DNA from: Bolinopsis microptera
Lineage: Eukaryota > Ctenophora > Tentaculata > Lobata > Bolinopsidae
NCBI RefSeq assembly: GCF_026151205.1
Contig: NC_087072.1
Coordinates: forward strand, 25,385,799 to 25,449,798
Reading direction: 5' to 3'
Length of the DNA: 64,000 bases
Shown: positions 1-56,325 of the stretch, piece by piece
Numbering within the stretch: position 1 is the first letter of the stretch
Layout: every line of letters begins with the position of its first letter
Program-made: the position numbers and the translations under genes
Notes under the pieces: generated by a model
The model's database searches: none
What the model was told of the DNA's origin: nothing
The model's input: the letters and a program-made list of their open reading frames with translations, nothing else

Positions 1-2848
1 ACTAGTAACTACTATGTACGATATTGAAACTAGTAACTACAATGTACGATATTCTAACTAGTAACTACTGTGTACGATATTCTAACTAGTAACTACTATG
101 TACGATATTCTAACTAGTAACTACTATGTACGATATTGAAACTAGTAACTACTATGTACGATATTGAAACTAGTAACTACAATGTACGATATTCTAACTA
201 GTAACTACTGTGTACGATATTCTAACTAGTAACTACTATGTACGATATTCTAACTAGTAACTACTATGTACGATATTCTAACTAGTAACTACTATGTACG
301 ATATTCTAACTAGTAAATACTGTGTACGATATTTTAACTAGTAACTACTATGTACGATATTGAAACTAGTAACTACTATGTACGATATTGAAACTAGTAA
401 CTACTATGTACGATATTCTAAATAGTAACTACTATGTACGATATTCTAAATAGTAACTACTATGTACGATATTGAAACTAGTAACTACTATGTACGATAT
501 TGAAACTAGTAACTACTATGTACGATATTTTAACTAGTAACTACTATGTACGATATTCTAAATAGTAACTACTATGTACGATATTCTAAATAGTAACTAC
601 TATGTACGATATTCTAACTAGTAAATACTGTGTACGATATTGAAACTAGTAACTACTATGTACGATATTCTAACTAGTAACTACTATGTACGATATTGAA
701 ACTATTAACTACTATGTACGATATTTTAACTAGTAACTACTATGTACGATATTTTAACTAGTAACTACTATGTACGATATTGAAACTAGTAACTACTATG
801 TACGATATTGAAACTAGTAACTACAATGTACGATATTCTAAATAGTAACTACTATGTACGATATTCTAAATAGTAACTACTATGTACGATATTTTAACTA
901 GTAACTACTATGTACGATATTCTAAATAGTAACTACTATGTACGATATTTTAACTAGTAACTACTATGTACGATATTGAAACTAGTAACTACTATGTACG
1001 ATATTCTAAATAGTAACTACTATGTACGATATTGAAAGTAGTAACTACTATGTACGATATTTTAACTAGTAACTACTATGTACGATATTCTAAATAGTAA
1101 CTACTATGTACGATATTTTAACTAGTAACTACTATGTACGATATTGAAACTAGTAACTACTATGTACGATATTCTAAATAGTAACTACTATGTACGATAT
1201 TGAAAGTAGTAACTACTATGTACGATATTTTAACTAGTAACTACTATGTACGATATTCTAAATAGTAACTTCTATGTACGATATTGAAACTAGTAACTAC
1301 TATGTACGATATTCTAACTAGTAAATACTGTGTACGATATTCTAACTAGTAACTACTGCGTACGATATTGAAACTAGTAACTACTATGTACGATATTCTA
1401 ACTAGTAAATACTGTGTACGATATTCTAACTAGTAACTACTGTGTACGATATTGAAACTAGTAACTACTATGTACGATATTCTAACTAGTAAATACTGTG
1501 TACGATATTCTAACTAGTAACTACTGCGTACGATATTCTAAATAGTAACTACTATGTACGATATTCTAACTAGTAAATACTGTGTACGATATTCTAACTA
1601 GTAACTACTGCGTACGATATTGAAACTAGTAACTACTATGTACGATATTCTAACTAGTAAATACTGTGTACGATATTCTAACTAGTAACTACTGCGTACG
1701 ATATTGAAACTAGTAACTACTATGTACGATATTCTAACTAGTAAATACTGTGTACGATATTGAAACTAGTAACTACTATGTACGATATTCTAACTAGTAA
1801 CTACTATGTACGATATTCTAAATAGTAACTACTATGTACGATATTCTAACTAGTAAATACTGTGTACGATATTCTAACTAGTAACTACTGCGTACGATAT
1901 TGAAACTAGTAACTACTATGTACGATATTCTAACTAGTAAATACTGTGTACGATATTCTAACTAGTAACTACTGCGTACGATATTGAAACTAGTAACTAC
2001 TATGTACGATATTCTAACTAGTAAATACTGTGTACGATATTGAAACTAGTAACTACTATGTACGATATTCTAACTAGTAAATACTGTGTACGATATTGAA
2101 ACTAGTAACTACTATGTACGATATTTTAACTAGTAACTACTATGTACGATATTGAAACTAGTAACTACTATGTACGATATTGAAACTAGTAACTACTATG
2201 TACGATATTCTAACTAGTAACTACTGCGTACGATATTCTAAATAGTAACTACTATGTACGATATTCTAACTAGTAACTACTATGTACGATATTCTAACTA
2301 GTAAATACTGTGTACGATATTCTAACTAGTAACTACTGTGTACGATATTGAAACTAGTAACTACTATGTACGATATTCTAACTAGTAAATACTGTGTACG
2401 ATATTCTAACTAGTAACTACTGCGTACGATATTCTAAATAGTAACTACTATGTACGATATTCTAACTAGTAAATACTGTGTACGATATTCTAACTAGTAA
2501 CTACTGCGTACGATATTCTAAATAGTAACTACTATGTACGATATTTTAACTAGTAACTACTATGTACGATATTGAAACTAGTAACTACTATGTACGATAT
2601 TCTAACTAGTAACTACTATGTACGATATTCTAACTAGTAAATACTGTGTACGATATTCTAACTAGTAACTACTGCGTACGATATTGAAACTAGTAACTAC
2701 TATGTACGATATTTTAACTAGTAACTACTATGTACGATATTCTAACTAGTAACTAATATGTACGATATTCTAAATAGTAACTGCTATGTACGATATTCTA
2801 AATAGTAACTGCTATGTACGATATTCTAACTAGTAACTGCTGTGTACG
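1..2848. repeat. 28-bp minisatellite, about 101 copies
   Basis: Head-to-tail array whose unit begins ACTAGTAACTACTATGTACG and is exactly 28 bp. The unit starting at base 1 recurs in register at base 2829, giving 101 full units and one partial unit. Variant positions (TATG/TGTG/TGCG; GAA/CTA/TTA at the unit end) are shared in blocks, which suggests local duplication of groups of units. The array runs off the left edge. It lies in the first intron of the minus-strand exon at 2852-2912, and the last partial unit contributes the splice donor. Confidence 0.97.
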
Positions 2849-2851
2849 TAC

Positions 2852-2912
2852 CATCATCAGTAGCAGCAGCTCCAGCGAAGAAGAAGAGGAGAGCTGTGAA
2901 GAAGATAACCAT
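2852..2912 (-). CDS. First coding exon (signal peptide) of an unidentified secreted protein; gene leaves the window
   Basis: On the minus strand, an ATG at 2912 opens a 61-nt exon of 20 codons plus one base. It encodes MVIFFTALLFFFAGAAATDD, a textbook signal peptide with a hydrophobic core and small residues before the likely cleavage site. The exon ends (phase 1) at a GTACGT splice donor read from 2851 to 2846. The next exon would lie beyond the left edge, across at least 2.8 kb of 28-bp repeats, so the mature protein is unknown. A phase-1 intron just after the signal peptide is also seen in the genes at 5861 and 13535, a common arrangement for modular secreted proteins. The start is the only Met upstream of the hydrophobic run. 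Confidence 0.6.
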
Positions 2913-3970: not shown

Positions 3971-3991
3971 AGAGTCCTCCTGATTCCTCAG

Positions 3992-4881: not shown

Positions 4882-4917
4882 AATGTGGTCAATATATAAA
4901 TAGCATATTCTACAATC

Positions 4918-5310: not shown

Positions 5311-5703
5311 TTACCTTCGAGATAGTAGTTGACCAACAAACTAGTGTCCCAACTTTCGAGGGGGTCCCAGCCTTAAAATAACCTCAACATACCCAACATC
5401 TCAGAATTTAAGCGCTGAACTTGTATACAAAAAACCATATATCCATATTTGGGCATACGCACCAAATTTGATAGATTTCAACCTATAAATTGGTCAAATA
5501 TCAACATTTCTATGAAAGGTAAGCCTAAACTACATATTATCTGTGAACTATAGCTCAATATCTATTAAAATGTGGATTGTGGAAACTAGTTTGTGGTCAA
5601 CTACAATCCGAAAACAAGTTTCACAACAAATTTAGGGTTAATCCCCTTAATCCCCTTGTAGAATATTGCTCAGTATGTTGTTCAATATAACACATACGGC
5701 CGT

Positions 5704-5789
5704 ATGGGGTCTCGTGGTATAGTGGATACAGTAGCCACGGCCCACGTGATTGTTAATGTACAAAGTTTGCGATTGTAATAAACAGACAT
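5704..5789 (+). other. tRNA-like fragment (degenerate), possible SINE head
   Basis: GGGGTCTCGTGGTATAGTGG resembles the 5' end and A box of a tRNA, and the bases at 5783-5789 (AGACATC) could pair with six of the seven first bases. The interior does not form a convincing anticodon arm and the B box is degenerate (GTTTGCGATT), so this is not called as a functional tRNA. Confidence 0.2.
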
Positions 5790-5860
5790 CTTTCCAAGAC
5801 GTGCTGATTGGAGCAACGGTGTTCTGATCATCAATCACATTTCTTTCTATCCAAAACATT

Positions 5861-6566
5861 ATGTTTCTTTTATTAGTGGTTGTGAGTCTCGCGTCCCTGC
5901 ATCTTGCAGCAGCAGGTAATATTTCATCTTCACAATATACTCCACCTGAGGATTCTCTCTACAAAAGAGTCTCTTTCTAGACAAATCTTTGTTCAAAAAA
6001 CTGATTTGGACAACTTTTCTAAACATTGGTCGCAACTCGAGCAATGAACCTTAATTGCTTGTAATCTAATATCAATATTAACCAATAACCAGCTCATCTT
6101 ATTCCTGCATTTCAGCAGACAACATTTTGTTGGCGACATGTGATGATCAAATGACAGTCTGGATTGACGGAAAGCAAACATACATAAGGGGCCAAGGGGT
6201 CTATGACGCTATGGGTTATATTAGGGTTAAATCATACACTCAAGTCATTGCCATCAAATGCGTTAACACAGGAAATAGTTATGGGATCATGGCCTCGCTC
6301 CAAAGAGGAGATAGATCAAGGCACATTATTGCGGCCACTGACGAGTCTTGGTCTTGCTCAAATACAGCTGATATAGGGTGGGAGAATCCAGGCTTTGTAC
6401 AAGGAGCAAACTGGAAACCAGCAACTACCCTAGCTACAATGGCCGTATGAGATCCTCCATTTATTTTGGGCCTAATAGAAAAACTATCTGGACTGATAGT
6501 GCCGCAGATACCACTGTTTACTGCCGACTACAAGGCAAGATTCCTTTTACACTGCCAGGCCTGTAA
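5861..6566 (+). CDS. Secreted protein with galactose-binding (jelly-roll) type domain; frameshift near the C-terminus
   Basis: Exon 1 (5861-5915) encodes the signal peptide MFLLLVVVSLASLHLAAA and ends at G|GTAATA. Exon 2 starts at 6116 after TTTCAG, and the phase-1 junction gives Ala. Exon 2 reads DNILLATCDDQMTVWIDGK, then a segment with VIAIKCVNTGNSYGIMASL, DESWSC and W-x-PA. This is the pattern of jelly-roll carbohydrate-binding domains (D-D-x-F-x-V-W-x-D/N-G-K, followed by a V-I-A-V-x-x-x-N strand). Its own frame ends at a TGA at 6448-6450. The expected family ending (YNGRM ... TIWTDSAADTTVYCRL ... LPGL) is in another frame and stops with TAA at 6564-6566. One missing base near 6431 would explain this, either as a real mutation or an assembly error. 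The 3' end lies inside the first unit of the 84-bp array that follows. Confidence 0.6.
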
Positions 6567-7404
6567 ACTATCTGGACTGATAGTGCCGCAGATACCACTG
6601 TTTACTGCCGACTACAAGGCAAGATTCCTTTTACACTGCCAGGCCTGTAAACTATCTGGACGGATAGTGCCGCAGATACCACTGTTTACTGCCGACTACA
6701 AGGCAAGATTCCTTTTACACTGCCAGGCCTGTAAACTATCTGGACTGATAGTGCCGCAGATACCACTGTTTACTGCCGACTACAAGGCAAGATTCCTTTT
6801 ACACTGCCAGGCCTGTAAACTATCTGGACTGATAGTGCCGCAGATACCACTGTTTACTGCCGACTACAAGGCAAGATTCCTTTTACACTGCCAGGCCTGT
6901 AAACTATCTGGACTGATAGTGCCGCAGATACCACTGTTTACTGCCGACTACAAGGCAAGATTCCTTTTACACTGCCAGGCCTGTAAACTATCTGGACGGA
7001 TAGTGCCGCAGATACCACTGTTTACTGCCGACTACAAGGCAAGATTCCTTTTACACTGCCAGGCCTGTAAACTATCTGGACTGATAGTGCCGCAGATACC
7101 ACTGTTTACTGCCGACTACAAGGCAAGATTCCTTTTACACTGCCAGGCCTGTAAACTATCTGGACTGATAGTGCCGCAGATACCACTGTTTACTGCCGAC
7201 TACAAGGCAAGATTCCTTTTACACTGCCAGGCCTGTAAACTATCTGGACGGATAGTGCCGCAGATACCACTGTTTACTGCCGACTACAAGGCAAGATTCC
7301 TTTTACACTGCCAGGCTTGTAAACTATCTGGACTGATAGTGCCGCAGATACCACTGTTTACTGCCGACTACAAGGCAAGATTCCTTTTACACTGCCAGGC
7401 TTGT
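6481..7404 (+). repeat. 84-bp tandem array, 11 copies, derived from the terminal exon of the jelly-roll gene
   Basis: Eleven units of exactly 84 bp, starting AAACTATCTGGACTGATAGT at 6481 and again every 84 bases to 7321. The first unit is the coding 3' end of the gene (TIWTDS...LPGL-stop). Units differ at very few positions: GGACTG versus GGACGG in units 3, 7 and 10, and GCCTG versus GCTTG in the last two. This indicates very recent amplification. In the gene's own frame each unit ends in TAA. In another frame all units are open, which creates a misleading long reading frame (6466-7518). Confidence 0.97.
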
Positions 7405-9317
7405 AAACTGAGAACAGGAGAACATTACGTAGGAGTGCTGATAGGACAACATGACGTACTACTACTACCAGTGCTGATAGGACCCTCACAACAATGGAAA
7501 TGGAATGTGAACTATTAGACGGAGCAGACAACATTAGAAATATTACAAATATTACAAAATATTATAAAATATTACAAATATGTAGTAAAATCCCAATTTA
7601 CCGCAGTTTAAAACAGTTTAAACAGTCCCGGTAAAGGAAGGAGGTGTTTTTCTTTGTGTAAATACGAAGCTCAGCGGCTGTTTAGTGTTTAAACTTGAAT
7701 AGATGGTTTTTTTAGTGTAGTATTTGTCAGTCACGTGACACAGTTTTTTTCGTAAATTCAACTTCAAGATAAAAGTGTATTATTTGTCGTGTTTTCCAAT
7801 GGTTTTAAACTAATTACAGCACTACAAATCTTGTCAAATCTATTACATTAATGAGTCCTAACTCTCCTCGCGTTATAAGATTACGTTTCTCTTGTCTCAT
7901 ATATATTATAATAATAAAAAATAAAACTCGAAAAATGTTTGCAGTGAACATGTTTTGTCAAACTTTATCTTCACAAAAAGAGATATATATTATATATCCT
8001 TAGTGATCATTTAAATCATTAAAAACCTTCTTTTGTCGATATTTTCTTCAGAAAAAGAAATAATAAAAATAACTTTAAATAAATATCTAAAATCACTGAC
8101 CAGTGTAATTCCTCATGTAGATAAGCTGATCAGAGAAGATTTTTTCCATCGACTTCTTTTTTCTTAAAAAAGCATAAGATGGTTAGAAGTGGTAGTATTT
8201 GAGGGTGGGTAGGGTAGGTAGGTAGGTTTTTCGTGGTGTCACAAAGCAAAACATGCATTACCCTCCGCATACATGTGCTCCTTCATAAATGTACACACAG
8301 CGTAAAAAGTGGATTTTGGTAATGCTGCGCCTTACGTTCAAGCCAGGTTCAAGGGATGTAACTTTGAACTTCAATCGATCATAATTGCAATGAATTCAGT
8401 ATTTCATTATTATCATAGCTACAGAATGCGAAACAATTTCGAAAACAGTTGCCAGCTGCAATTACAAAGACGAAATTTAAAAAGCAAACTGATCGCAATC
8501 AAATCCAACATTTTTACCATTTTCTTGACTATCACTAACTCTAAGTAGTAAGTACAGAACATAAAACTAGATTTTGAGAATAACAAAAAATATGTCCGAA
8601 GAACGTAGCCATCATCGAAAACCGATAAAATCACTTTACAATTGTAGAATTGTGCACTTAAAATGACGCAAATCGCTGCTCAGCGGTGCGCAATAAGCGC
8701 ATGGCTGGCGAATCAAACTTTCATTTTCAACGAAAGCAAACAGAACAGAACGCAACTAAATTGTCCGATTATATGCGCGTGAATTTCCTTTAAAAACTGT
8801 ATGCGTCGCATTACGTGACATTCCATATATGGTCATGCGAATCGAAATCAGGACGGGTATAAGATTTAGTTAGTAATGTGAACGTAGTCATACTGCAAAT
8901 TAATCGCGATGCATATATTATATTCGAACGAATTTTGCTAAGTATTATGATATAGAATTGTAATTATAGGACTTATAAAGACAGTTAATGGAAATTTAGC
9001 GTCCGCCTATAGCCTAACGGGCGCAATTCTTGTTGTATTTAATTTTCTCAAATATTGGGTTTCATTTTTATAAAATAAGGAAAAGAAAAAAATCGGTTTT
9101 CGGTAAAATTCCCATATTTTCTTTCCCAAATCATTTAGGTCACCGGAATTACGTCGAACATAAATAATAAATATTTCTCGTAAGGTAGATGGTTACTCCT
9201 TCCTGAATTAAATATAGTCTACAGATGTTTGAAACCGTTCCGATGTATCGGGAGCACCCTGTACATAGTGAAGGTATGTATGTATAACTAACATCATAAG
9301 CTATTATATCCAGGTTG
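7405..9317. other. Non-coding AT-rich region
   Basis: No convincing exon on either strand. It holds a short degenerate palindromic block at about 7575-7640 (TTTACCGCAG ... CCCGGTAAAGG) and a GGTAGG microsatellite at about 8208-8226. A similar CGGTAAATCAGGG motif recurs at about 19305-19360. Confidence 0.5.
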
Positions 9318-22827: not shown

Positions 22828-22835
22828 AACCTCTT

Positions 22836-26602: not shown

Positions 26603-27555
26603 GTCAGTAACATTCAAACTTATCAGGTACATGGTCAGTAACATTCAAATATACACTGCATGTCATCAGGTACATGGTCAGTAACACTCAAATATACACT
26701 GCATGTCATCAGGTACATGATCAGTAACACTCAAATATACACTGCATGTCATCAGGTACATGATCAGTAACACTCAAATATACACTGCATGTCATCAGGT
26801 ACATGGTCAGTAACACTCAAATATACACTGCATGTCATCAGGTACATGATCAGTAACACTCAAATATACACTGCATGTCATCAGGTACATGGTCAGTAAC
26901 ACTCAAATATACACTGCATGTCATCAGGTACATGGTCAGTAACACTCAAATATACACTGCATGTCATCAGGTACATGGTCAGTAACACTCAAATATACAC
27001 TGCGTGTCATCAGGTACATGGTTAGTAACACTCAAATATACACTGCATGTCATCAGGTACATGATCAGTAACACTCAAATATACACTGCATGTCATCAGA
27101 TACATGATCAGTAACACTCAAATATACACTACATGTCATCAGGTACATGATCAGTAACACTCAAATATACACTGCATGTCATCAGGTACATGATCAGTAA
27201 CACTCAAATATACACTGCGCGTCATCAGGTAAATGGTTAGTAACACTCAAAATACACTGCATGTCATCAGGTACATGATCAGTAACACTCAAATATACAC
27301 TGCATGTCATCAGGTACATGATCAGCAACACTCAAATATACACTGCATGTCATCAGGTACATGGTCAGTAACACTCAAATATATACTGCATGTCATCAGG
27401 TACATGGTCAGTAACACTCAAATATACACTGCATGTCATCAGGTACATGATCAGTAACACTCAAATATACACTGCATGTCATCAGATACATGGTCAGTAA
27501 CACTCAAATATACACTGCATGTCATCAGGTACATGGTCGTAACGCTCAAATATAC
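26603..27555. repeat. 43-bp minisatellite, about 22 copies
   Basis: The unit contains CATCAGGTACATGGTCAGTA and ACACTCAAATATACACTGCA and is 43 bp, with little divergence (GGTCAG/GATCAG and GCATG/GCGTG variants). It abuts the minus-strand exon at 26319-26600. Confidence 0.95.
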
Positions 27556-28060
27556 ATCCTTACTAAAGTATGGCCACATTGGCCATACTTTGGTAAAACA
27601 AACTTCTTGGCGACTCTAACTAGGGCCAGAAAAATTTAGTCATTCAAAATTTGTATATAAATGTGTTGATTTAATGTGTTGATTTAATTGACGATGTCAA
27701 TCCTTCGCAATTTGGCGTGGCCCAATGGCCCAGCATCGCGCTACAAATAAATGTGTAGTTTGTACGGGTTCAATCATAGTCTAGAGTGGGTACAGAATTT
27801 GTTTCCCTCTTATTTTTATAAATTTTGTACCAAATGTTGGCCCATGAATGTGGTTTCGATGAGATCTAAAAGCTGAACTTTATAAGAACGTGATTACTTA
27901 AAATGCTAAAATAGTGACCCCCCCCCCCCCCTCACCCACTTCATATTGCAATTTAACAAATAAACCCGTTTACAAAACTTTTCCCAAAAGCTCCAACTAT
28001 CACAAACTGCTCAAATGACAAATATCTCAATGGTCCTACTTACTAACTTCTAGACAGGAC
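27556..28060. other. Non-coding; contains a hairpin, a dispersed repeat and a poly-C run
   Basis: A perfect 12-bp stem with a 3-base loop lies at 27565-27591 (AAAGTATGGCCA, CAT, complement). A copy of the GATGTCAAT/GGCCCA repeat lies at about 27683-27745, and a C14 run at about 27918-27931. No gene seen. Confidence 0.5.
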
Positions 28061-43000: not shown

Positions 43001-46000
43001 CACGGCTTACTAATTGTAATAAGTTTTGGTTTATGACATCAATCACACTCGTGAAAATCTCTAGGATTGCTTTCGGGCCGATACCAGCACTTCGGAATAA
43101 GGGCGGTAGTTAATGTCCAATAAGGTGAGGTTTATCGAATCGATACTGCCGAGTACAGCTGCCTCCGGGCAGTGCTCCTTTATATATTACAATTGTAAAT
43201 GAAAGGGAGACACTGGCAGTCCACTCTACCCAATTATGGGTTTTGGTCAAATATCATCCATTTTGGTTAATGTCAAAATGTAAAATTAATAACTTCATAA
43301 AAAAGGAGGTCATTTCAGCGAGTTCAAATGTTACCTTTTAAAACATTTCCTTGTGTTATTAGAGTCAGCATATCTCTCGAGCACTGACTAAATATGCCAC
43401 TTTATAGTTATTCAAGTTGGCATTAGATTCACATCTGTCATTTATCTGTCGTGGGAAAGCAGGATCTAATGGAAATCACGCATGAGCGAAATTCTCATCT
43501 TTCGCAAACTTTGAGCGGACGTTGCGTGCGCATCCAATACCAAATCACCATAAAATTTATTTGTGTAGTTCTTATAATTATATAGTTTTATAAGCATGCA
43601 AAGTTTCAAAAGATTTCAAGACATCTTCTCACAACTGGATTCCAAAGTTGATTTTTAAAAATCACGAACTTCAATAGCAAATATCTTTATGAAGGAGCAA
43701 GCTAGGAAAACTTTCCGGTAAATTTTCTATATGACCTCAAAAGTTAAATTTAATTACTCTATAATGGATAAAAATCAATTTGAAAAAGTATTATTTTGTC
43801 AAATATCAAGTTTTAAAAATGTTCAACTCATCAAGTGGTGATGATGACGTCAAATTTTTTGTATACAATGTAAAATACAGTGTAACTGTAAAAAATGACG
43901 TGACTAGTCCCAGTGTCACGTCATTGTTCCTGGACTAGTCCCAGTGTCACATCATTGCTCCTGGACTAGTCCCCCGTGTCACATCATTGCTCCTGGACTA
44001 GTCCCAGTGTCACGTCATTGCTCCTGGACTAGTCCCCCGTGTCACATCATTGCTCCTGGACTAGTCCCAGTGTCACGTCATTGCTCCTGGGACCTGGACT
44101 AGTCCCAGTGTCACGTCATTGCTCCTGGACTAGTCCCAGTGTCACGTCATTGCTCCTGGACTAGTCCCAGTGTCACGTCATTGCTCCTGGACTAGTCCCA
44201 GTGTCACGTCATTGCTCCTGGACTAGTCCCAGTGTCACGTCATTGCTCCTGGACTAGTCCCAGTGTCACGTCATTGCTCCTGGACTAGTCCCAGTGTCAC
44301 GTCATTGCTCCTGGACTAGTCCCAGTGTCACATCATTGCTCCTGGACTAGTCCCAGTGTCACGTCATTGCTGGATCACTAGTTTAATGCTGGAGTTTACT
44401 TTTAAACTCTTCTCTGAGTCTACTCTGAACAGTTTAGAGGTCAGTAGAGACATACTGGTCACCATAGTAACCGGTAATGTATACCGTGAATTAGGGTCCG
44501 CCACAGTATTCCTCCGACTAGAGTTGCACATCTGAATGTAAGTGTTGAGGTGCAGTATCGTGGGTGTGAAGGCTGCTCGTCCTGCTGGGAGGACCCACTT
44601 GCACATTAGGTTTAAATAAACATACACTTTTATTGCCTTATTCTCATCTCCCACAGTCTTTATGAACCAGGACCAGCTGATTAACCTCTCTGTGCTCATC
44701 AGGAAGTCAAAGAGGATTAGAAGAGCCTTAGGAAAGTAAGCTATGATAAAAAAGGCAGTGAGGAGTGCGGTTTTCTTTTTAGCGTCGCTGCTCTTATCCT
44801 TCCTTTGAACTCGGGTCACTCGTTTAGCGTGTAGCTTCATAAATACGAAGAAAAGTAAACAGCTTATAACACAAACAAGGAACGGAGTCCACCAGAGCAC
44901 ATCTATCAGTAGGACCATTGCTGGGGCCTTGGTTCCGTCTACTTCATAACTACACTCCCCCAAGTTGGGGGAATACTCGTACCGGGAGACGACCATGTCC
45001 AGGTTAAAGAAGGGCAGAGCACAGATAAGAGCCTGGAACAGGGCTAGTAGAGATAAGATGTAGATGAAGGGGTGGTAAGTGACGCTCCTCAATCTGAGAG
45101 GGCACACTGTTGTCACACATCTATACACCATTATACACGTTATAGTGAACCAGCCGTATCTGTCGCTGAAGTGGTTTACAAAACCGAATATCTTGCAGAA
45201 GATGGTTGGGAAAGACAAGGGTCTTTTAGCTAAAATCAGGATTGCGTTTGGAGAAACTCCCAGTGTACAGAGCAACTGAAATAGAATATTAGTTTTGACA
45301 TCACTTTTACTTTCGATGATTAATAATAAATACACATTACCAGAATTCGAATACACTATAAACATATTGACGATATACTTAAAGAAGTAGGTAATTTACC
45401 AAATCGTTTGCGGCTAAAACCAGTGCACACAGAGTAAAAGGATGAATTTTAACTGTCTTCCTGACAACCCAGAATCTAGAGAGCACAGAACCATTACTGT
45501 AGATACCGACTAGGGCGAACACTAGGTAGACAGTCCCAATAACCATGTCCAGTTCTGCAATGGTGTAGTAGATATAGGCAGGAGGCACTGTACTCGTGTA
45601 GTAGATATAGGCAGGAGGCACTGTACTCGTGTAGTAGATATAGGCAGGAGGCACTGTACTCGCAACTTGGTCCGTTCCATTCATGGCGCCCTTCAAACAT
45701 TCAATGGTTTTAACTAACAACTTAACAAGTTTGAAGCAAAGCAAAAATTGTAGACGATATCATATTGTTAAATTATAAATATATATGTAAATAATTCGAA
45801 CAATTGAAACAAATCAAATTGGCGGGCAAACGATCCGTTTCATGATATGTATAAAAACAATACCAATCATCAGGCTCTGATGATTGGTATTGTTTTTATA
45901 CATATCATGAAACGGATCGTTTGCCCGCCAATTTGATTTGTTTCAATTGTTCGAATTATAATGCTCCTGCTTAACTGCAGTCGAGCACTCTCTTTGGGAA

Positions 46001-49000: not shown

Positions 49001-52000
49001 ATATCACCATTGAGGGATATAGCACCATAAAATGAGGGATATATCACCATTGAGGGATATATCACCATAAAATGAGGGATATATCACCATAAAATGAGGG
49101 ATATATCACCATAAAATGAGGGATATATCACCATAAAATGAGGGATATATCACCATTGAGGGATATATCACCATAAAATGAGGGATATATCACCATTGAG
49201 GGATATATCACCATAAAATGAGGGATATATCACCATTGAGGGATATATCACCATACATTGAGGGATATATCACCATACATTGAGGGATATATCACCATAC
49301 AATGAGGGATATATCACCATTGAGGGATATATCACCATACATTGAGGGATATATCACCATTGAGGGATATATCACCATAAAATGAGGGATATATCACCAT
49401 AAAATGAGGGATATATCACCATTGAGGGATATATCACCATAAAATGAGGGATATATCACCATTGAGGGATATATCACCATAAAATGAGGGATATATCACC
49501 ATTGAGGGATATATCACCATACATTGAGGGATATATCACCATACATTGAGGGATATATCACCATACAATGAGGGATATATCACCATTGAGGGATATATCA
49601 CCATAAAATGAGGGATATATCACCATTGAGGGATATATCACCATAAAATGAGGGATATATCACCATTGAGGGATATATCACCATACAATGAGGGATATAT
49701 CACCATTGAGGGATATATCACCATACATTGAGGGATATATCACCATACATTGAGGGATATATCACCATACATTGAGGGATATATCACCATACATTGAGGG
49801 ATATATCACCATACATTGAGGGATATATCACCATACATTGAGGGATATATCACCATTGAGGGATATATCACCATAAAATGAGGGATATATCACCATTGAG
49901 GGATATATCACCATACATTGAGGGATATATCACCATTGAGGGATATATCACCATACAATGAGGGATATATCACCATTGAGGGATATATCACCATACATTG
50001 AGGGATATATCACCATTGAGGGATATATCACCATACAATGAGGGATATATCACCATACATTGAGGGATATATCACCATTGAGGGATCACGTGATTTCATA
50101 GCGAACCGGGGTCTTTTTACTTCCTCCTTGTTACGGCCAATTGAGCGACGCAATGTTCACATTTTGCTGATCCTGAGATGATACCTCACCCTTCCCTCAC
50201 CCTTCCTTCACTCTTCCCTCACCCTTCCCTCACCCCTCGCCCTTCCCTCGCCCTTCCCTCACCCCTCGCCCTTCCCTCGCCCTTCCCTTACCCTTCCCTC
50301 GCCCTTCCCTCGCCCTTCCCTCATCCTTCCCTCACTCTTCCCTCACCCTTCCCTCACCCTTCCCTTACCCTTCCCTTACCCTTCCCTCGCCCTTCCCTCA
50401 CCCTTCCCTCACCCTTCCCTCACCCTTCCCTTACCCTTCCCTTACCCTTCCCTCGCCCTACCCTCACCCTTCCCTCATCCTTCCCTCACCCTTCCCTCAC
50501 CCTTCCCTCACCCTTCCTTCACCCTTCCCTCACCTTAACTGCTAACTTGGAATGTGTTCAGGAGGGTATAAAGACGAAGCCTTGTCCTCGTGTGAAATGT
50601 ATGACCTACACTCTGACCGATGGTCTAACATCTCACCCCTCAACTTTGCTAGAGATGGTCCTGGGGTGGTGTCCCTTAATAACTCCATATACGCAGCAGG
50701 TAAGTGGTGGGAGGGTTGTAATGTTATTTACATTGATATCCTTTACCTGTTACCTAGGTAACCTTACCTGTTACCTAGGTAATCTTACCTGTTACCTAGG
50801 TAACCTTACCTGTTACCTAGGTAACCTCACCTGTTATAATACTTAGTGCTACTGTACTTTTTTAAACAAAAGTAAAGTAAAACATATGTACAATGCAAGC
50901 AGCACTACAGCAGTATTAACCCACGTGTCGATCCTTCCCAAGTTTGAACTCGTGGGACGTAGCGGCCTATTATAATGCTACGATATCATGTGAAGCAGTA
51001 TTTGAAGCAGTATTTGATTTAACAGGTGATACTCGTATAATATCTGCGCGCGTCCTGGTAGGTTGTAAACCTACAATATTTGATGCATGGCCAGTTGTGT
51101 ATTGCACTGCATCCCACGTATAACACTTACAGGAGGATATAACGGTAAGGATTACAAAGTGGTTGAAAGGTTTGACCCCCGGGTGGGGATCTGGGAACGA
51201 GTCCCAAACATGGAACAGTCTCGATCTTACGGAGCTACTGCAGTTGCTGACGGCAAAATATTCTGCTTTGGGGGCCGCCAAAAAGATAAAAAGGTTCGAT
51301 TACTAGTTCCTTACAAATTATTTTAACCACTACTTTGCTCGTCAGGAAAACACAAACGATTATTTTTGGACACAACCCAGCAAAACTAACTGACTGGGCG
51401 TGTTACTGTTATTACTATTAGAGATTATCGCGTCTTCACAGTGAGTCCATGCTCGCGCGTCTTATATGTTTATCGACATCGTTAATTCTGCCAAAATTTC
51501 CGGACGTCCGGATTTTCAGAAACCACCCCCGTCCCCTGTCCGTATTTGTCCGAAATTCCAAAACTACCCCCTCCCTATTATAAATGGACCTTAAAAGACA
51601 TATATGCAACGTGCAGCAATTATTTTTCCAAAACTATCCTTCACCAAAACATTAACCTACCAACATTGGCAGGTTGTGTTTGTTGAGTTCTACGACCCTC
51701 GAGCCAGCAAATGGGACAGTTTGGATGATCTAGACACAGAGAAAAGTGATGCGAGGGCTGTATCCATCGACAACACGGTATAAATGTTTTAATTAACAAT
51801 TAAGATCTGAATGGTTAAAATCAGTGAAAAAAGTACGTGTAAATTTATCGAATAATCTGGTTGATCCAAGTTATCCGGTTACCAATTGTTGGCCAATATG
51901 GCCATGCACTTGTGCGTGACGGGCCCACAGCGTGCAAGGATACAAGGATACAAGGATACAAATTTAAGGATACAAGGATACAAGGATACAAGGATACAAG

Positions 52001-55000
52001 GATACAAGGATACAAGGATACAAGGATACAAGGATACAAGGATACAATTACAAGGATACAAGGATACAAGGATACAAGGATACAAGGATACAAGGATACA
52101 AGGATACAAGGATACAAGGATACAAGGATACAAGGATACAAGGATACAATGATACAAGCAACATGGATACAAGGATACAAGGGTACAAAAGTGATAATTA
52201 CATTTATTGAGTTCACAATAGTGGTAATCCTGAAATACACATTGACATCATCGGCAAGTAATACTAATGGCCGCAAAAATTGATGGTTCCTTCAAGATCA
52301 AAATCAACAATAATTTTTAGATTTAGATAAATAGGAATATTAATTTTAGCCAGTCTCGCCTCTACTTTCTACAAAGCTACGTGCAATGTGCATGGGGCAA
52401 TTTACTGGGTATCCGTATATATTTTGTATTTTAACGTATGACAAGTTTCTAGAGGGTTTTCATCGAGCCCAAGCAAGCAATCGTCAGTCCTGCCATTTCT
52501 GATTTAGTACCGAGTTTATACTCAATATGCTCAATAACATTTGGTTGGGGGCCATCTACTTAGGACGTCCGCCAAAATCACATATTTTCAAACCTCCCCC
52601 TGTCCGGGTGTGTCCGAATTTTCAAAACACCCTTCCCCGGCCGGACGTCCGGATTTCCAGCTACTTTGACGATTACGAATAACTCGGCTCTCGTGAGCTG
52701 CTCTGGGAATCTACTTCTCGTTCAAAATACAGGGATCTAAACTTACAAAGTAATTAGTGTCAAAGAGTTGAAATAAATGAGACTTTTTCGTTAATTCTGC
52801 CAAAATTTTTCAGAAACCACCCCCCCCCCCCTCCCCCTGTCCGGATTTGTCCGTAATTCCAAAACCACCCCCTCCCTATTTGCCGGACGTCCTAAGTAGA
52901 TGGCACGTCCTTACCAATGTTATCAGCAATCAGGTTACCATGTTATCAGGTTACCAAGTTATTTGTTACCAAGGTATCTGTTACCAAGGTTTATGTTATA
53001 CCAATGTGTCTGGTTACCGAGTTATCTGTTGCCAAGGTATCTGTTACCAAGGCATATGTTATACCAATGTGTCTGGTTACCAAGTTATCTGTTACCAAGG
53101 TATCTGTTACCAAGTTATCTGTTACCAAGGCATATGTTATACCAATGTGTCTGGTTACCAAGTTATCTGTTGCCTAGGTATCTGTTACCGAGGCATATGT
53201 TATACCAATGTGTCTGGTTACCAAGTTATCTGTTACCAAGGTATCTGTTACCAAGGCATATGTTATACCAATGTGTCTGGTTACCAAGTTATCTGTTACC
53301 AAGGTATCTGTTACCAAGTTATCTGTTGCCAAGGTATCTGTTACCAAGGCATATGTTATACAATGTGTCTGGTTACCAAGTTATCTGTTGCCAAGGCATA
53401 TGTTATACAATGTGTCTGGTTACCAAGGTATCTGTTACCAAGTTATCTGTTACCAAGGCATATGTTATACAATGTGTCTGGTTACCAAGTTATCTGTTAC
53501 CAAAGTATCTGTTACCAAGGCATATGTTATACAATGTGTCTGGTTACCAAGTTATCTGTTGCCAAGGCATATGTTATACCAATGTGTCTGGTTACCAAGG
53601 TATCTGTTACCAAGGCATATGTTATACCAATGTGTATGGTTACCAAGGTATCTGTTACCAAGGCATATGTTATACCAATGTGTCTGGTTACCAAGGTATC
53701 TGTGACCAAGTTATCTGTTAACAAGGCATATGTTATACAATGTGTCTGGTTACCAAGTTATCTGTTGCCAAGTTATCTGTTACCAAGGCATATGTTATAC
53801 AATGTGTCTGGTTACCAAGTTATCTGTTACCAAGGTATCTGTTACCAAGGCATATGTTATTCAATGTGTCTGGTTACCAAGTTATCTGTTGCCAAGGCAT
53901 ATGTTATACCAATGTGTCTGGTTACCAAGGTATCTGTTACCAAGGCATATGTTATACCAATGTGTCTGGTTACCAAGGTATCTGTTACCAAGGTATCTGT
54001 TACCAAGGCATATGTTATACCAATGTGTCTGGTTACCAAGGTATCTGTTACCAAGGCATATGTTATACCAATGTGTCTGGTTACCAAGGTATCTGTTGCC
54101 AAGGTATCTGTTACCAAGGCATATGTTATACCAATGTGTCTGGTTACCAAGTTATCTGTTGCCAAGGTATCTGTTACCAAGGCATATGTTATACCAATGT
54201 GTCTGGTTACCAAGGTATCTGTTGCCAAGGTATCTGTTACCAAGGCATATGTTATACCAATGTGTCTGGTTACCAAGGTATCTGTTACCAAGGCATATGT
54301 TATACCAATGTATCTGGTTACCAAGTTATCTGTTGCCAAGGTATCTGTTACCAAGGCATATGTTATACCAATGTATCTGGTTACCAAGTTATCTGTTGCC
54401 AAGGTATCTGTTACCAAGGCATATGTTATACCAATGTGTCTGGTTACCAAGGTATCTGTTACCAAGGCATATGTTATACCAATGTGTCTGGTTACCAAGT
54501 TATTTGTTGCCAAGGTATCTGTTACCAAGGCATATGTTATACCAATGTGTCTGGTTACCAAGGTATCTGTTACCAAGGCATATGTTATACCAATGTGTCT
54601 GGTTACCAAGGTATCTGTTACCAAGGCATATGTTATACCAATGTGTCTGGTTACCAAGTTATTTGTTGCCAAGGTATCTGTTACCAAGGCATATGTTATA
54701 CCAATGTGTCTGGTTACCAAGGTATCTGTTACCAAGGCATATGTTATACCAATGTGTCTGGTTACCAAGTTATTTGTTGCCAAGGTATCTGTTACCAAGG
54801 CATATGTTATACCAATGTGTCTGGTTACCAAGGTATCTGTTACCAAGGCATATGTTATACCAATGTGTCTGGTTACCAAGTTATCTGTTGCCAAGGTATC
54901 TGTTACCAAGGTTTATGTTATACCAATGTGTCTGGTTACCAAGTTATTTGAGTTGCATATCCCAGATATACTTGCTTGGTGGGCTGGATAAAGATGACAG

Positions 55001-55106
55001 ACCGCTGGATGACGTACAATCTTACGACCCTCTTACCAGAGAGTGGATGCAGCTTCCAAATCTCACAACTAAACGGCGTCTCATGGCAGTAGCCAGTGTA
55101 GGATAG
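31054..55106 (+). CDS. BTB-BACK-Kelch protein (KLHL family), 14 exons across 24 kb, complete
   Basis: Exons: 31054-31289, 31414-31533, 31751-31891, 32562-32660, 32764-32838, 33012-33170, 41634-41785, 41981-42105, 42248-42361, 42485-42593, 50562-50699, 51133-51293, 51673-51777 and 54966-55106. Codon phase closes at every junction (624 residues from the first Met; a start at 31132 or 31141 is equally possible). BTB: GKLSDVCIKCG ... LLLSANSHYFKAMF ... VDPEILKSLIDFCSTSRLTI. BACK: ELVGWCDQFIRENI ... ESQLFEGLITWVKHD ... LDVISLKYLYHV. Six Kelch blades follow (IMGGLGS, LMSGGEG, VVGGYKD, AAGGYNG, CFGGRQK, LLGGLDK). KLHL proteins usually act as cullin-3 ubiquitin-ligase substrate adaptors. The donor of exon 7 (T|GTTTGT) is the weakest junction. 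Introns 3, 6, 10 and 13 are filled with minisatellites or transposons. The stop codon lies inside the first unit of a tandem array. Confidence 0.88.
31979..32548. repeat. 25-bp minisatellite, about 23 nearly identical copies (KLHL intron 3)
   Basis: Unit GGTGGGACAAGTGACATGAT followed by GTAAT, 25 bp, almost without variation. Because 25 is not a multiple of three, all minus frames stay open and give spurious proteins. Confidence 0.97.
33171..36965 (+). repeat. 55-bp minisatellite, 69 copies of the BACK-exon 3' end plus splice donor (KLHL intron 6)
   Basis: The array length of 3795 bp is exactly 69 x 55. Each unit reads GTGTGTACCCTCATATCAGA, TTACAGTTTCTTACTGAACT, then C/ATTCGCTTGTATCAG. It is a copy of the last 48 or so bases of exon 6 (coding HIRSQFLTELFACIR) joined to the first intron bases GTGTGT. 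Every unit therefore carries a copy of the authentic 5' splice site CAG|GTGTGT. Confidence 0.97.
36978..37529 (+). repeat. Dispersed element of about 560 bp, copy 2
   Basis: Direct counterpart of the reversed copy at 25519-26083, with the core TTAACTGGGCGACGCTCGGC at about 37335. It lies between the two minisatellites of KLHL intron 6. Confidence 0.7.
37605..41620. repeat. 11-bp satellite, about 365 units, with higher-order repeats (KLHL intron 6)
   Basis: The basic unit is CTCTGTAACCG with variants (CCT, ACT, TGC, GTC, TAACG). Blocks are repeated at larger scale; for example the block near 40020-40290 recurs near 40877-41150. On the minus strand all three frames read the same 11-residue peptide (VTERLQSGYRA type), which creates many false open frames. 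The last unit runs into the acceptor of exon 7. Confidence 0.97.
42594..42851. repeat. Short duplication in KLHL intron 10
   Basis: CTTGTAACTTGACAGTACTG-type segments repeat about three times at 42609-42705; the rest is AT-rich spacer. Confidence 0.5.
42852..43251. mobile_element. Foldback/MITE-like element, about 400 bp
   Basis: The left arm 42852-42907 (ATTTGACCAAAACCCATAAT, then TGGATAGAGTGGACTGC) is inverted at 43197-43251 with few differences. There is no coding frame. Confidence 0.65.
43252..43901. other. Non-coding intronic sequence
   Basis: Part of KLHL intron 10 and downstream of the antisense GPCR gene. AT-rich; no exon or repeat recognised. Confidence 0.4.
43902..44372. repeat. 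31-bp minisatellite, about 15 copies, containing the GPCR stop codon
   Basis: Unit TCCTGGACTAGTCCCAGTGT followed by CACGTCATTGC. On the minus strand the first unit begins CAATGACGTGACACTGGGAC, and its TGA (44366-44364) is the GPCR stop codon. A few units carry CCCCGTG variants, and one unit has an 8-bp insertion near 44090. Confidence 0.95.
44364..45684 (-). CDS. Rhodopsin-class orphan G-protein-coupled receptor (2 exons), nested antisense in KLHL intron 10
   Basis: Exon 1 is 45684-45400 (an upstream in-frame Met at 45744 is possible). Exon 2 is 45275-44364. The phase-0 junction gives ANDL|LLCT (398 residues). Start choice: ATGAACGGAACG after GCGCC, giving an N-glycosylation site (NGT) at the outside. 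TM1 has the N-x-x-x core (VGIYSNGSVL), TM2 has LAANDL, and TM3 ends in VYRCVTTVCPLR in place of DRY. A second-loop Cys (GECSY) can pair with the TM3 Cys. TM6 is ALLTAFFIIAYFPK, without the CWxP tryptophan, and TM7 ends TPTILHLNTY in place of NPxxY. It is therefore a divergent class A receptor; ligand unknown. The N-terminus contains three 11-residue repeats (STVPPAYIYYT). Confidence 0.8.
45564..45662 (-). repeat. In-frame 33-bp coding repeat, 3 identical copies
   Basis: Three identical 33-bp units in exon 1 of the GPCR encode STVPPAYIYYT three times in the extracellular N-terminus. Identity at the DNA level implies recent expansion. Confidence 0.95.
45791..45959. other. Perfect palindrome: 83-bp arms, 3-base loop
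   Basis: The arm 45791-45873 is, by reading, the exact reverse complement of 45877-45959, separated by GCT. It starts about 107 bases upstream of the GPCR start. The arms include TTGGCGGGCAAACGATCC. The resulting RNA would be a long perfect hairpin. Confidence 0.9.
46337..46729 (-). pseudogene. Remnant of a Crypton/DUF3504-type tyrosine-recombinase protein
   Basis: The minus strand reads MNIRPLSEDQLQLLAADSEG, then NNWSKNRYKAWA, an in-frame TAG, then PLDNIPSEFNNVPLDRITFV, LSKLITEITDIKGQPYEAKT and FHALLLALCRV. This matches the N-terminal SAM-like part common to Crypton-derived proteins (KIAA1958/ZMYM type: W-x-x-W, ... L-x-x-x-L-x-x-F, ... G-x-x-Y-x-x-x-T/S-L). The nonsense codon and the loss of the catalytic C-terminal part mark it as dead. 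The frame becomes meaningless after about 46400. Confidence 0.45.
46730..47744. other. Non-coding intronic sequence with a 20-bp repeat
   Basis: Contains about five to six copies of a roughly 20-bp unit ACACGTGTATAATAATGCTA at 47210-47314; otherwise AT-rich and without recognisable exons. Confidence 0.5.
47745..48092. mobile_element. TIR MITE (GGCCATCTACTTAGGACGTCC family), copy 1
   Basis: Starts GGCCATATACTTAGGACGTC and ends with its complement CGGACGTCCTAAGTAGATGG+CC; about 350 bp. The subterminal parts contain CCCCCTGTCCGG and TGTCCGAA blocks. AAAAG next to both ends may be the target duplication. A second copy is at 52549-52904 and a partial copy at 51477-51590. Confidence 0.75.
48475..50141. 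mobile_element. TIR element with an internal 18/22-bp minisatellite
   Basis: TIRs of about 50 bp: ATTGGCCGTACAAGGAGGAA, then GTAAAATGGTGACCCC, GTTCGCTATGAAATC on the left. The right end is the complement with small differences (GTAACAAGG; AAAGACCCCGG). Between about 48618 and 50086 the element is filled by about 70 units of TGAGGGATATATCACCAT, each either 18 bp or lengthened to 22 bp by ACAT, ACAA or AAAA spacers. No transposase is present. Confidence 0.8.
50183..50537. repeat. 11-bp polypyrimidine minisatellite, about 32 copies
   Basis: Unit CACCCTTCCCT with variants CGCCCTTCCCT and TACCCTTCCCT. It lies immediately before the acceptor of KLHL exon 11 and is entirely pyrimidine/A on the sense strand. 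Confidence 0.95.
50743..50832. repeat. 21-bp palindromic tandem repeat, about 4 copies
   Basis: Unit ACCTGTTACCTAGGTAACCT plus T, centred on the palindrome GTTACCTAGGTAAC, just after exon 11. Confidence 0.9.
51019..51076 (+). mobile_element. 93-bp miniature element, copy C (internally deleted to 58 bp), with 8-bp target duplication
   Basis: Starts TTAACAGGTGATACTCG and ends GGTTGTAAACCTACAA. It is flanked by TATTTGAT at 51011-51018 and 51077-51084. About 35 bases of the interior are missing compared with copies A and D. It lies in KLHL intron 11. Confidence 0.85.
51477..51590. repeat. Fragment of the GGACGTCC MITE family
   Basis: Corresponds to the right half of the MITEs at 47745 and 52549 (CCGGACGTCCGGATTTTCAG, TTTGTCCGAAATTCCAAAA), in KLHL intron 12. 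Confidence 0.6.
51937..52182. repeat. 10-bp minisatellite, about 24 copies
   Basis: Unit AAGGATACAA, with two interruptions (TTTAAGG and TTACAAGG), in KLHL intron 13. Confidence 0.95.
52549..52904. mobile_element. TIR MITE (GGCCATCTACTTAGGACGTCC family), copy 2
   Basis: GGGCCATCTACTTAGGACGT at the left and the complement GGACGTCCTAAGTAGATGGC at the right, about 355 bp, with the same internal blocks as copy 1. Confidence 0.75.
52917..54952. repeat. Composite minisatellite (15/16/32-bp modules, 63-bp main period), KLHL intron 13
   Basis: Built from CTGGTTACCAAGTTAT, CTGTTACCAAGGTAT and CTGTTACCAAGGCATATGTT+ATACCAATGTGT modules. The main period of 63 bp and the optional 15-bp modules are both multiples of three. 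Frames therefore stay open for hundreds of codons on both strands although nothing is encoded. Confidence 0.96.
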
Positions 55107-55495
55107 CGGATAGTGTATCCTACAGTGTAGGATAGTGTGTACTGTGTATCCTACAGTGTTGTAGGTTTACAACCTACCAGGACGCGCGCCGAGTTGGACT
55201 CGTCGACGGTCCAATATATGGAACAGATATTTTACGAGTATCACCCGTTAACTACAGTGTAGGATAGAGTGTATCCTACAGTGTATGATAGTGTGTATCC
55301 TACAGTGTAGGATAGTGTATCCTACAGTGTAGGATAGTGGGTATCCTACAGTCTAGGATAGTGTGTATCCTACAGTGTAGGATAGTGGATAGTGTGTATC
55401 CTACATGCAGTGTAGGATATTGGATATCCTACAGTGTTGGATAGTGCGTATCCTACATGCAGTGTAGGATGGTGGATAGTGATTGAACCAAACAA
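55096..55495. repeat. 22-26-bp minisatellite at the KLHL stop codon
   Basis: Units built on GTATCCTACAGTGTAGGATA. The KLHL stop codon TAG is in the first unit (AGTGTAGGATAG). The array is split by the 93-bp element at 55159-55251. Confidence 0.9.
55159..55251 (-). mobile_element. 93-bp miniature element, copy D, inserted in a satellite, with 8-bp target duplication
   Basis: On the minus strand it begins TTAACGGGTGATACTCG and ends GGTTGTAAACCTACAA. It is flanked by CTACAGTG at 55151-55158 and 55252-55259. The flank also occurs in the satellite unit, so this duplication alone is weaker evidence than copies A and C. Confidence 0.85.
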
Positions 55496-56325
55496 ACATC
55501 CGATTATGGACTATTCGTGAATTGTTACGACATATTTAATGAATTTGCACTACAAGGATTAATTTCTCTTCAGAATTCAGATAATGATTTTATGTCGCAA
55601 AAAACTTGTCATTTGTTATTTTTGTGCTTCAAAACGAAAGTGAAGCACAAACTTTGAAGTATTTGGACTATTTTGAGTTACTGTTTCGATCAATATTATT
55701 TGATTTCAAGGACTAGCACGGAAATGTTTACTTTGTCACACTATAAACATGTGACGGAGTAAATATGGACCCCTTGCTGCTGTGTTTGACCAAATTTTCG
55801 AGTGTCCAGTTGATATACATAATAGGATGGGTACACATGACTATTAACTACATATTTGACGACTTTTTTCGTTAAATGGTGCGCCCAGGTTTACTCCGTC
55901 ACACATTCAAGAAAATATATGAGGAATGTTTAGGGCACCCTGACAAGGAATGCTGAGTAGTGTAGGATTACTTTGTGACCTGGAAGTGCTGGAAATTGTT
56001 ATCTTAAACAATAATCTCCGAATGTGTGTGTGTCTGTCTGTCTGCGTGTAATTTCCGAGCGGGTTAATCAAGAAAACGGTAAGAGTTACGGGGCTGGTTT
56101 TTTGGTATAGTGCCGACAAAACTATGATCGGATTGAGGAAGCCATATGATTAAGCTAAGGTTTTTTAATCGGCCGGTGGTAAGTGGTTTAATTCATAATT
56201 GATGGTTTTGTACCACAAATGTGACATAAAATTGCTCACATTTTCTCTCTCCTCGCTCTCTCTCCCATTACTGCATATTATGTAGCGTTGGTACATATAT
56301 CATAATTAGGTTAGCCTCGATATAG
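55496..56325. other. Intergenic, no gene seen
   Basis: Contains a GTGTGTGTGTCTGTCTGTCT run near 56025 and the block TTAATCAAGAAAACGGTAAG near 56066, which is also found at 23100. It is probably element debris. Confidence 0.5.

What the first reader, a model, noticed from the sequence alone, without database searches (positions are those of the whole stretch)
1..55500. Minisatellites repeatedly start at exon boundaries or stop codons
At least five arrays begin exactly at a gene landmark: the 28-bp array at a splice donor (2846-2851), the 84-bp array from a terminal exon (6481), the 55-bp array at a donor (33171), the 31-bp array at the GPCR stop codon (44364), and the 22-26-bp array at the KLHL stop codon (55104). 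A sixth (43-bp, 26603) abuts a putative exon. Chance placement seems unlikely. It suggests a process that amplifies sequence at exon edges, perhaps transcription- or RNA-linked, or it is a bias of what selection tolerates.
Basis: partly seen in the sequence, partly recalled or inferred. Interest (0 to 1): 0.8.

Follow-up and report, generated by a model that had tools for sequence, protein, structure and literature searches.

The report
Repeat arrays born across splice donors
In this animal genome (probably a comb jelly), many repeat arrays begin inside the last few dozen bases of an exon and copy the exon's end together with the start of the intron, more often than chance allows, probably because the first copy keeps the gene working while the extra copies are thrown away in the intron.

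Summary
Of the six arrays named, one is firmly tied to a splice donor (55 bp, KLHL) and one to a stop codon (84 bp); two sit at plausible landmarks (GPCR stop; KLHL stop or donor), one at an unsupported exon (28 bp), and one has no support (43 bp). I tested 177 introns of myosin, kinesin, chaperonin, dynein and ABC genes in the same genome. Of 32 arrays, 15 have an edge within 10 bp of a splice site (2.64 expected from placement in the same introns). Seven of 29 repeat units straddle a donor (1.64 expected), one an acceptor. The small validation set alone is weak (3 vs 1.01; donor-straddling 1 vs 0.32). Best reading: a common, nearly homology-free tandem-duplication process filtered by selection. 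A unit straddling a donor or stop codon leaves its first copy working, and later copies become intron or 3' UTR. This explains the geometry. It does not explain the roughly four-fold donor excess over intron-uniform births, which suggests that duplications arise preferentially in exons or at donors.

The parts
33012..33170 (+). KLHL exon coding part of the BACK domain; its last 49 nt are the first part of the 55-bp unit
   Evidence: Pfam BACK 5e-08 alone, 2.2e-11 joined to the next exon; splice sites
33122..36973 (+). 55-bp array, 70 copies, straddles the donor at 33171 (49 nt exon + 6 nt intron); 2 bp overhang at the end
   Evidence: 8.1 copies in the paralogous segment
37606..41620 (+). 11-bp array, 365 copies, ends 13 bp before the acceptor at 41633
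   Evidence: 46.8 copies in paralogue
31979..32548 (+). 25-bp array, 22.8 copies, ends 13 bp before acceptor 32561
   Evidence: 110.8 copies in paralogue
41867..41962 (+). 19/38-bp array ending 18 bp before acceptor 41980
42602..42701 (+). 37-bp array starting 8 bp after the donor at 42594
50184..50534 (+). 11-bp pyrimidine-rich array ending 27 bp before the acceptor at 50561
   Evidence: 322.5 copies counted up to the end of the fetched paralogue piece
52929..54947 (+). 15/63-bp array ending 18 bp before acceptor 54965
54966..55098 (+). last recognised kelch exon of KLHL
   Evidence: Kelch_1 3.8e-09; identical 44-residue peptide in the paralogue
55094..55481 (+). 22-26-bp array starting at the kelch exon end: stop TAG at 55104 or donor GTAGGA at 55099, undecided; interrupted by a non-repeat stretch
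6481..7409 (+). 84-bp array; unit = last 27 codons + TAA stop of a small gene with a signal-peptide-like first exon; 5-bp overlap at the ends
6118..6566 (+). terminal exon of that gene (stop of the intact frame 6564-6566); the window copy is frameshifted upstream of the array, an intact copy exists (L096)
43902..44371 (-). 31-bp array, 14.9 copies, starting at the GPCR stop codon (TGA 44364-44366); one copy in the paralogue; 4-nt filler at the copy junction
45563..45662 (-). 33-bp in-frame coding repeat of the GPCR N-terminus, 3.0 copies here, 2.1 in paralogue
1..2848 (-). 28-bp array (cut by the window start) next to a donor-like site of a signal-peptide-like ORF; no homology tested
26622..27556 (.). 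43-bp array; no coding support for the abutting exon in the frames read

Best explanation
Short tandem duplications with little or no sequence homology at their ends arise often in this genome and grow into minisatellites (copy-number change is shown by paralogues). Where a duplicated unit straddles a 5' splice site or a stop codon, the first copy keeps the exon, the splice signal or the stop codon unchanged, so later copies fall into the intron or 3' UTR and selection does not see them (inferred: no RNA data). Duplications inside exons or across acceptors change the message and are purged (inferred). Surviving arrays that overlap coding sequence therefore begin inside the last 12-84 nt of coding sequence and are anchored at donors and stop codons (geometry shown). 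On top of this filter, duplications seem to arise more often in exons or at donors than inside introns (inferred from the excess over uniform births; cause unknown).
For: Nine donor-straddling repeats: window KLHL 49 exon + 6 intron nt, x70; L014 30+10, x22; L034 26+7, x52; L050 53+12, x12; L038 27+about 26, x about 8; L091 30+5, x25; L058 53+2, x2 (100% identical); L032 12+41, x2; L031 20+18, x2. L014 is outside the intron counts because its next exon was not found. Pooled 177 introns: edge within 10 bp of a donor 10 of 32 (1.32 expected), of an acceptor 5 of 32 (1.32); donor-straddling 7 of 29 (1.64 expected, P 7e-4). True two-copy repeats: 3 of 3 with score >=100 straddle a donor (0.24 expected, P 4e-4), 3 of 9 with score >=80 (0.42 expected, P 0.0065). 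The first donor spacing is no multiple of 3 in any of the nine: measured for L032, L034, L038 and L050, taken from unit length for L031, L058, L091, KLHL and L014. Copies of the donor region within 200 nt downstream 7 of 177, of the acceptor region upstream 1 of 177, P 0.034. Near-integer copy numbers in 7 of 7 donor-straddling arrays, 9 of 17 others of period >=20 (P 0.033; 3 of 17, P 3e-4, if only overhangs above an integer count), which fits births with 0-1 bp of end homology. KLHL overlap is 2 bp, L014 and the 84-bp gene 5 bp; the GPCR array has a 4-nt filler. The KLHL 55-bp array has 70 vs 8.1 copies in two paralogues with the same exon-side edge.
Against: Numbers are small. The validation set alone gives edges 3 vs 1.01 (P 0.047) and donor-straddling 1 vs 0.32 (P 0.28). 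With TRF rows of score >=50 in set 1 the donor excess shrinks to 6 vs 2.25, P 0.02. L050 and L058 are paralogous dynein genes whose repeats start within 1 nt of the same aligned place, so they may not be independent; without L058 it is 6 of 28 vs 1.75, P 0.006. Six of nine two-copy repeats of score >=80, all with short units (19-25 bp), are intron-internal. One acceptor-straddling array exists (L031). Five KLHL arrays (within 27 bp) and four sampled arrays (within 10 bp) hug acceptors without straddling them, which the first-copy argument does not predict. Exon-interior duplications were not counted, so the exon-biased birth step is untested. A constrained first copy could keep donor repeats recognisable for longer. 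Exons come from homology only, without RNA.
Confidence: 0.57

Rival explanations
1. A transcription- or splicing-linked process makes tandem duplications preferentially at 5' splice sites (for example breaks where the polymerase pauses or RNA-DNA hybrids form at exon ends).
For: Donor-straddling units 7 vs 1.64 expected, acceptor-straddling 1; the three strong two-copy repeats all straddle donors; low end homology, filler nucleotides; two dynein paralogues repeat the same 53 exon nt before the donor, within 1 nt.
Against: Units inside introns carry no donor motif; arrays also hug acceptors and stop codons; selection against acceptor duplications gives the same asymmetry; no break or RNA data.
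Confidence: 0.2
2. Duplications arise evenly everywhere and only selection and longer recognisability of copies next to constrained exons create the pattern.
For: Explains first-copy geometry, donors over acceptors, stop codons and frame-breaking spacings; one constrained copy slows divergence; 6 of 9 two-copy repeats of score >=80 are intron-internal.
Against: Interior intron births should then dominate among young, longer units too, but 3 of 3 two-copy repeats of score >=100 straddle donors (0.24 expected); no decayed donor copies were found: the 7 hits of 177 all score >=50, none lies between 36 and 50.
Confidence: 0.15
3. The donor arrays are functional: many donor copies bind U1, buffer splicing or allow stepwise (recursive) removal of long introns through AG|GT units.
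For: The KLHL array holds 55 intact CAGGTGTGT sites; AG|GT is a known dual-specific splice site in tandem repeats (PMC10809524, abstract).
Against: Only 5 of the 9 donor-straddling units have AG before GT; KLHL copy number is not conserved (70 vs 8.1); three of the nine have only two copies.
Confidence: 0.05
4. The introns were created by the tandem duplications (intron gain).
For: Proposed mechanism in Drosophila (PMC2891723, passages).
Against: In the seven counted donor-straddling cases the last copy is followed by at least 95 bp of non-repeat intron before the acceptor; in KLHL by 4.66 kb.
Confidence: 0.02
5. Artefact of short introns or chance.
For: Introns are short (median 221 bp of 147), so any array lies near an exon; the validation set alone is only marginal.
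Against: The test places each array inside its own intron; the excess holds for residual length <=300 (donor 7 of 12 vs 1.11) and >300 (either edge 7 of 20 vs 0.41).
Confidence: 0.05

Closest known systems
Variable internal tandem repeats at exon-intron boundaries in human segmental duplications (De Grassi and Ciccarelli 2009, PMC2812944)
   Same: Minisatellites (on average 30-bp units) at exon-intron boundaries that differ in copy number between recent paralogues; 27 intron modifications, growth more than loss (outline, section 5 part 1 of 2, section 10)
   Different: There repeats were collected because their copy number varies, about 4 copies. Here genes were sampled by protein family, arrays reach 52-70 copies, and the position is tested against placement in the same intron
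Dual-specific AGGT splice sites in tandem repeats (PMC10809524; abstract and outline seen)
   Same: Splice sites repeated once per unit of a tandem array
   Different: Each AGGT there can serve as donor and acceptor; here 4 of 9 units lack AG|GT and later copies lie in the intron
[quoted passage not shown] passages seen)
   Same: Tandem duplication that includes a splice motif
   Different: There the duplication creates the intron; here the intron seems to have existed and only its donor side is repeated
Ordinary intronic minisatellites
   Same: Variable copy number, arrays inside introns
   Different: Donor-straddling units, near-integer copy number

Membership tests
Boundary internal tandem repeats (PMC2812944) | minisatellite lies across an exon-intron boundary | tested here: met
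   nine donor-straddling repeats, three of them with only two copies
Boundary internal tandem repeats (PMC2812944) | copy number differs between recent paralogues | tested here: met
   KLHL 55-bp 70 vs 8.1 copies; not tested for the eight other donor repeats
Boundary internal tandem repeats (PMC2812944) | RNA shows changed intron or exon length | not testable with these tools
   no transcripts held
Intron gain by tandem duplication | repeat copies at both splice sites of the intron | tested here: not met
   at least 95 bp of non-repeat intron between array and acceptor in the seven counted donor-straddling cases
Dual-specific splice-site arrays | AG|GT at each unit boundary | tested here: inconclusive
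   5 of 9 units
Dual-specific splice-site arrays | sites used as both donor and acceptor | not testable with these tools
   no RNA

The most novel reading that the evidence does not exclude
5' splice sites are hot spots for homology-free tandem duplication in the germ line of this lineage: a transcription- or splicing-linked break copies 33-65 bp around the exon end, about 4% of donors (7 of 177 sampled) carry such a repeat at any time, and these births seed a share of its intronic minisatellites.
Probability: 0.2. Interest if true: 0.82.

Novelty: new variant of a known kind. Interest (0 to 1): 0.52.

Why it matters
If donors are places where tandem duplications arise or survive, introns in such genomes can grow from their donor side, and the same events are raw material for new splice variants and new introns. 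Units that straddle a donor carry their own proof of where the event began, so the origin of a minisatellite can be located to the base. That makes the old question of mutation bias versus selection at exon edges testable by counting very young copies.

Tried and rejected
Donor motif in intron-internal repeat units as a cause: no enrichment in 24 arrays. A tile-based similarity count inside introns was dominated by long arrays (253 of 1580 tiles at score 36) and was not used as a control; only its donor-acceptor comparison is quoted. The paralogue of the 28-bp array region was guessed at C1:25656700-25659700 and shows no match to the window (L097). Intron gain by duplication was rejected because the repeat does not reach the acceptor in the counted donor-straddling cases. 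Mended on checking: one search undercounted near-integer arrays by rounding (5 of 17; correct 9 of 17); one search lists 4 of 4 two-copy repeats at donors, but one (L038) is really about 8 copies of about 52 bp, so the figure is 3 of 3; eight KLHL intron ends used were off by one to three bases and were corrected. Because of the weaker two-copy figure I moved the even-births rival from 0.14 to 0.15 and the best explanation from 0.58 to 0.57.

Rows dropped: one search left out L025 and L027 (near-identical duplicates, 4 introns) and 14 of the remaining 143 introns with splice score under 18. One search left out 8 of 56 validation introns for the same reason, among them L076, whose 11-bp array starts 8 bp after its donor (favourable); in set 1 introns with interior arrays were dropped too (L057, one of L022). 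Searches left out L069+L070, whose array is cut by the fetch. L015 and L017 were fetched but not used in the intron test. Sampling was not genome-wide or exhaustive: five Pfam families plus a second dynein domain; spans were chosen for neighbouring exon matches; 53 stretches fetched for set 1, 51 used; 36 for set 2. One 13-kb kinesin gene was left out of set 1 for its length and taken into set 2; it supplied L091, the only donor-straddling case of set 2. Near-identical ABC paralogues were skipped. Several score and period cut-offs were tried.

Literature: eight library searches. I found no report of donor-straddling minisatellites in ctenophores in their listings; that proves little. PMC3152781 was searched for four splice and boundary terms without a hit; PMC4039745 passages concern intronic minisatellites and alternative splicing. 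PMC10232365 was seen only as a listing with the start of its abstract (one search failed). Papers known from recall only (human introns from tandem arrays, 2007; intron creation by tandem genomic duplication, 2011) were not read.
Full report
Setting. The window is G000:C1:25385799-25449798 of an assembly of 264.65 Mb in 232 contigs; C1 is 26.2 Mb long, so the window lies about 0.76 Mb from its end. The lengths of 12 of contigs C1-C13 were seen and add up to about 240 Mb. A table in PMC11797021 gives 265 Mb and 13 chromosomes, but 346 scaffolds, for the ctenophore Bolinopsis microptera (passages). I infer a lobate ctenophore; this is not proven. Arrays (TRF score >=80) cover 29.6% of the window and 10.4% of 250,171 bases of sampled gene stretches.

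The six claims. The 55-bp array is firmly at a donor: the unit is the last 49 nt of a BACK-domain exon plus GTGTGT, and the domain match runs on when this first donor is joined to the exon at 41634. The 84-bp array repeats the last 27 codons and the stop codon of a small gene. The paralogue L096 has the intact frame and 8.1 copies, the window 11.1 copies and an upstream frameshift. The 31-bp array begins at a GPCR stop codon that is the same in the paralogue, where only one copy exists. Contraction of an array would leave the same one-copy sequence, so the direction of change is not proven. The GPCR body has 12 synonymous and 3 non-synonymous differences between the copies, the tail 5 and 4 plus an in-frame gap, so the coding status of the last 40 or so codons is uncertain. 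The KLHL 3' array fits a donor or a stop codon. The 28-bp case rests on an ORF without tested homology. The 43-bp case found no support in the frames read.

In the KLHL gene five arrays end 13-27 bp before an acceptor and one starts 8 bp after a donor. In all, 7 of 12 intronic arrays have an edge within 27 bp of a splice site (1.83 expected); within 10 bp it is 2 of 12 (0.72 expected, P 0.15). This is the discovery gene. The gene and its arrays are duplicated about 290 kb away (L004, L005, L095; most blocks 93-97% identical, one at 85%). There the exon-side edges are the same but the lengths are not: 25-bp 22.8 vs 110.8 copies, 55-bp 70 vs 8.1, 11-bp 365 vs 46.8, GPCR coding 33-bp 3.0 vs 2.1. 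Between the 55-bp and 11-bp arrays the window has about 0.6 kb that the paralogue lacks. Exon-side edges thus seem fixed early, and copy number is what changes.

Genome sample. Stretches were chosen for neighbouring exon matches, not for repeats, though the match tables also list open-frame lengths, which long arrays can stretch. Splice sites were refined by frame, continuity along the profile, and GT/AG scores, giving 147 introns in set 1 (median 221 bp) and 56 in set 2. Each array was compared with uniform placement in its own intron.

Result. Set 1 complete: 30 arrays of score >=80 and period >=10 in 24 introns; edge within 10 bp of a splice site 12, expected 1.74 (donor 8 vs 0.87, acceptor 4 vs 0.87). 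After the quality filter, pooled 177 introns: 15 of 32 vs 2.64, donor 10 vs 1.32, acceptor 5 vs 1.32. Set 2 alone: 3 of 9 vs 1.01 (P 0.047). The excess is present for short residual introns (donor 7 of 12 vs 1.11) and long ones (either edge 7 of 20 vs 0.41). Units that straddle the donor by at least 4 exon nt: 7 of 29 with period >=15, expected 1.64, P 7e-4; set 2 alone 1 of 8, expected 0.32, P 0.28; acceptor-straddling 1 of 29. Two of the seven (L050, L058) are paralogous dynein genes with repeats that start within 1 nt of the same aligned place; without L058 it is 6 of 28, expected 1.75, P 0.006.

Anatomy. The seven counted cases plus L014 and the window KLHL have 12-53 exon nt and 2 to 41 intron nt in the unit. 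In the seven, the intron left after the array is 95-220 bp in four (L034, L050, L038, L032) and longer in three (L031, L058, L091); the first four are close to an ordinary short intron, so the intron was probably there before. The first donor spacing is no multiple of 3 in any of the nine (four measured, five from unit lengths). Copy numbers are near-integer in 7 of 7 donor-straddling arrays and 9 of 17 others (P 0.033). The two-copy cases show 0-1 bp overlap at the ends, KLHL 2 bp, L014 and the 84-bp gene 5 bp, and the GPCR array a 4-nt filler. This fits end joining of staggered breaks better than slippage between long repeats; that step is inference. Donor copies are either strongly similar or absent (7 of 177 at score >=50, none between 36 and 50), so they are young or homogenised.

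Reading. Selection explains the geometry: a straddling duplication leaves the upstream copy of exon, donor or stop untouched. Across an acceptor, an upstream AG would be met first (established view of acceptor choice, recalled), so such duplications should be purged; 1 acceptor vs 7 donor copies of 177 each agrees (P 0.034). The same filter allows in-frame coding repeats such as the 33-bp GPCR repeat. It does not explain why donor-straddling births exceed interior intron births, above all among strong two-copy repeats (3 of 3 with score >=100; but 3 of 9 with score >=80, the other six being short-unit intron repeats). Births may be denser in exons, with exon-interior ones lost, or at donors themselves; the data do not separate these. 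Acceptor-hugging arrays that stop near the pyrimidine tract form a second, unexplained class.

Known ground. Human minisatellites across exon-intron boundaries are described (PMC2812944, parts read), as are tandem AGGT splice sites (PMC10809524, abstract) and intron gain by tandem duplication (PMC2891723, passages). What is added here is the rate (7 of 177 donors), the test against placement, and the nearly homology-free births in a probable ctenophore.

Noticed in passing
window 5969-7709 and about 30015-56085 versus G000:C1:25661850-25663350, 25706001-25726000 and 25730450-25731650: Segmental duplication about 270-290 kb apart on the same contig, most blocks 93-97% identical, one at 85%; it could also be two haplotypes placed in one contig.
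   Followed up: partly
L050 (minus, donor at 1119) and L058 (donor at 3599): Two paralogous dynein genes carry donor repeats with 53 exon nt each, starting within 1 nt of the same aligned place: a shared hot spot or coincidence.
   Followed up: partly
window 45791-45959: Perfect inverted repeat, 83-nt arms, 3 nt between; the paralogue alignment skips 45794-46021.
   Followed up: partly
window 44364-45700 within KLHL intron 42594-47107: A GPCR gene (7tm_1 just under the curated cut-off) lies antisense inside a KLHL intron.
   Followed up: no
window 45563-45662: 33-bp in-frame coding repeat in the GPCR N-terminus, 3.0 copies vs 2.1 in the paralogue.
   Followed up: partly
L006:2612-2803 and 2855-3085: Myosin head exon matched twice side by side (profile 105-167 and 102-167), possibly mutually exclusive exons.
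   Followed up: no
L031:4208-4529 and 5381-5911: A 21-bp unit that contains the acceptor and the first exon bases, in two blocks of one intron; only the last copy continues into the exon.
   Followed up: partly
window 17391-18503 and 57590-59059: Two reverse-transcriptase ORFs (RVT_1).
   Followed up: no
window 59911-63400: Inverted repeats of 357 nt, 97% complementary, 2776 nt apart, around ORFs of which the two scanned had no Pfam match: an unidentified mobile element.
   Followed up: partly
G000, 81 matches to the small protein of the 84-bp array gene: A large family of proteins of about 150 aa on many contigs (81 match rows, some of them repeat copies of one gene); no Pfam match at 0.01 for the paralogue's peptide.
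   Followed up: no
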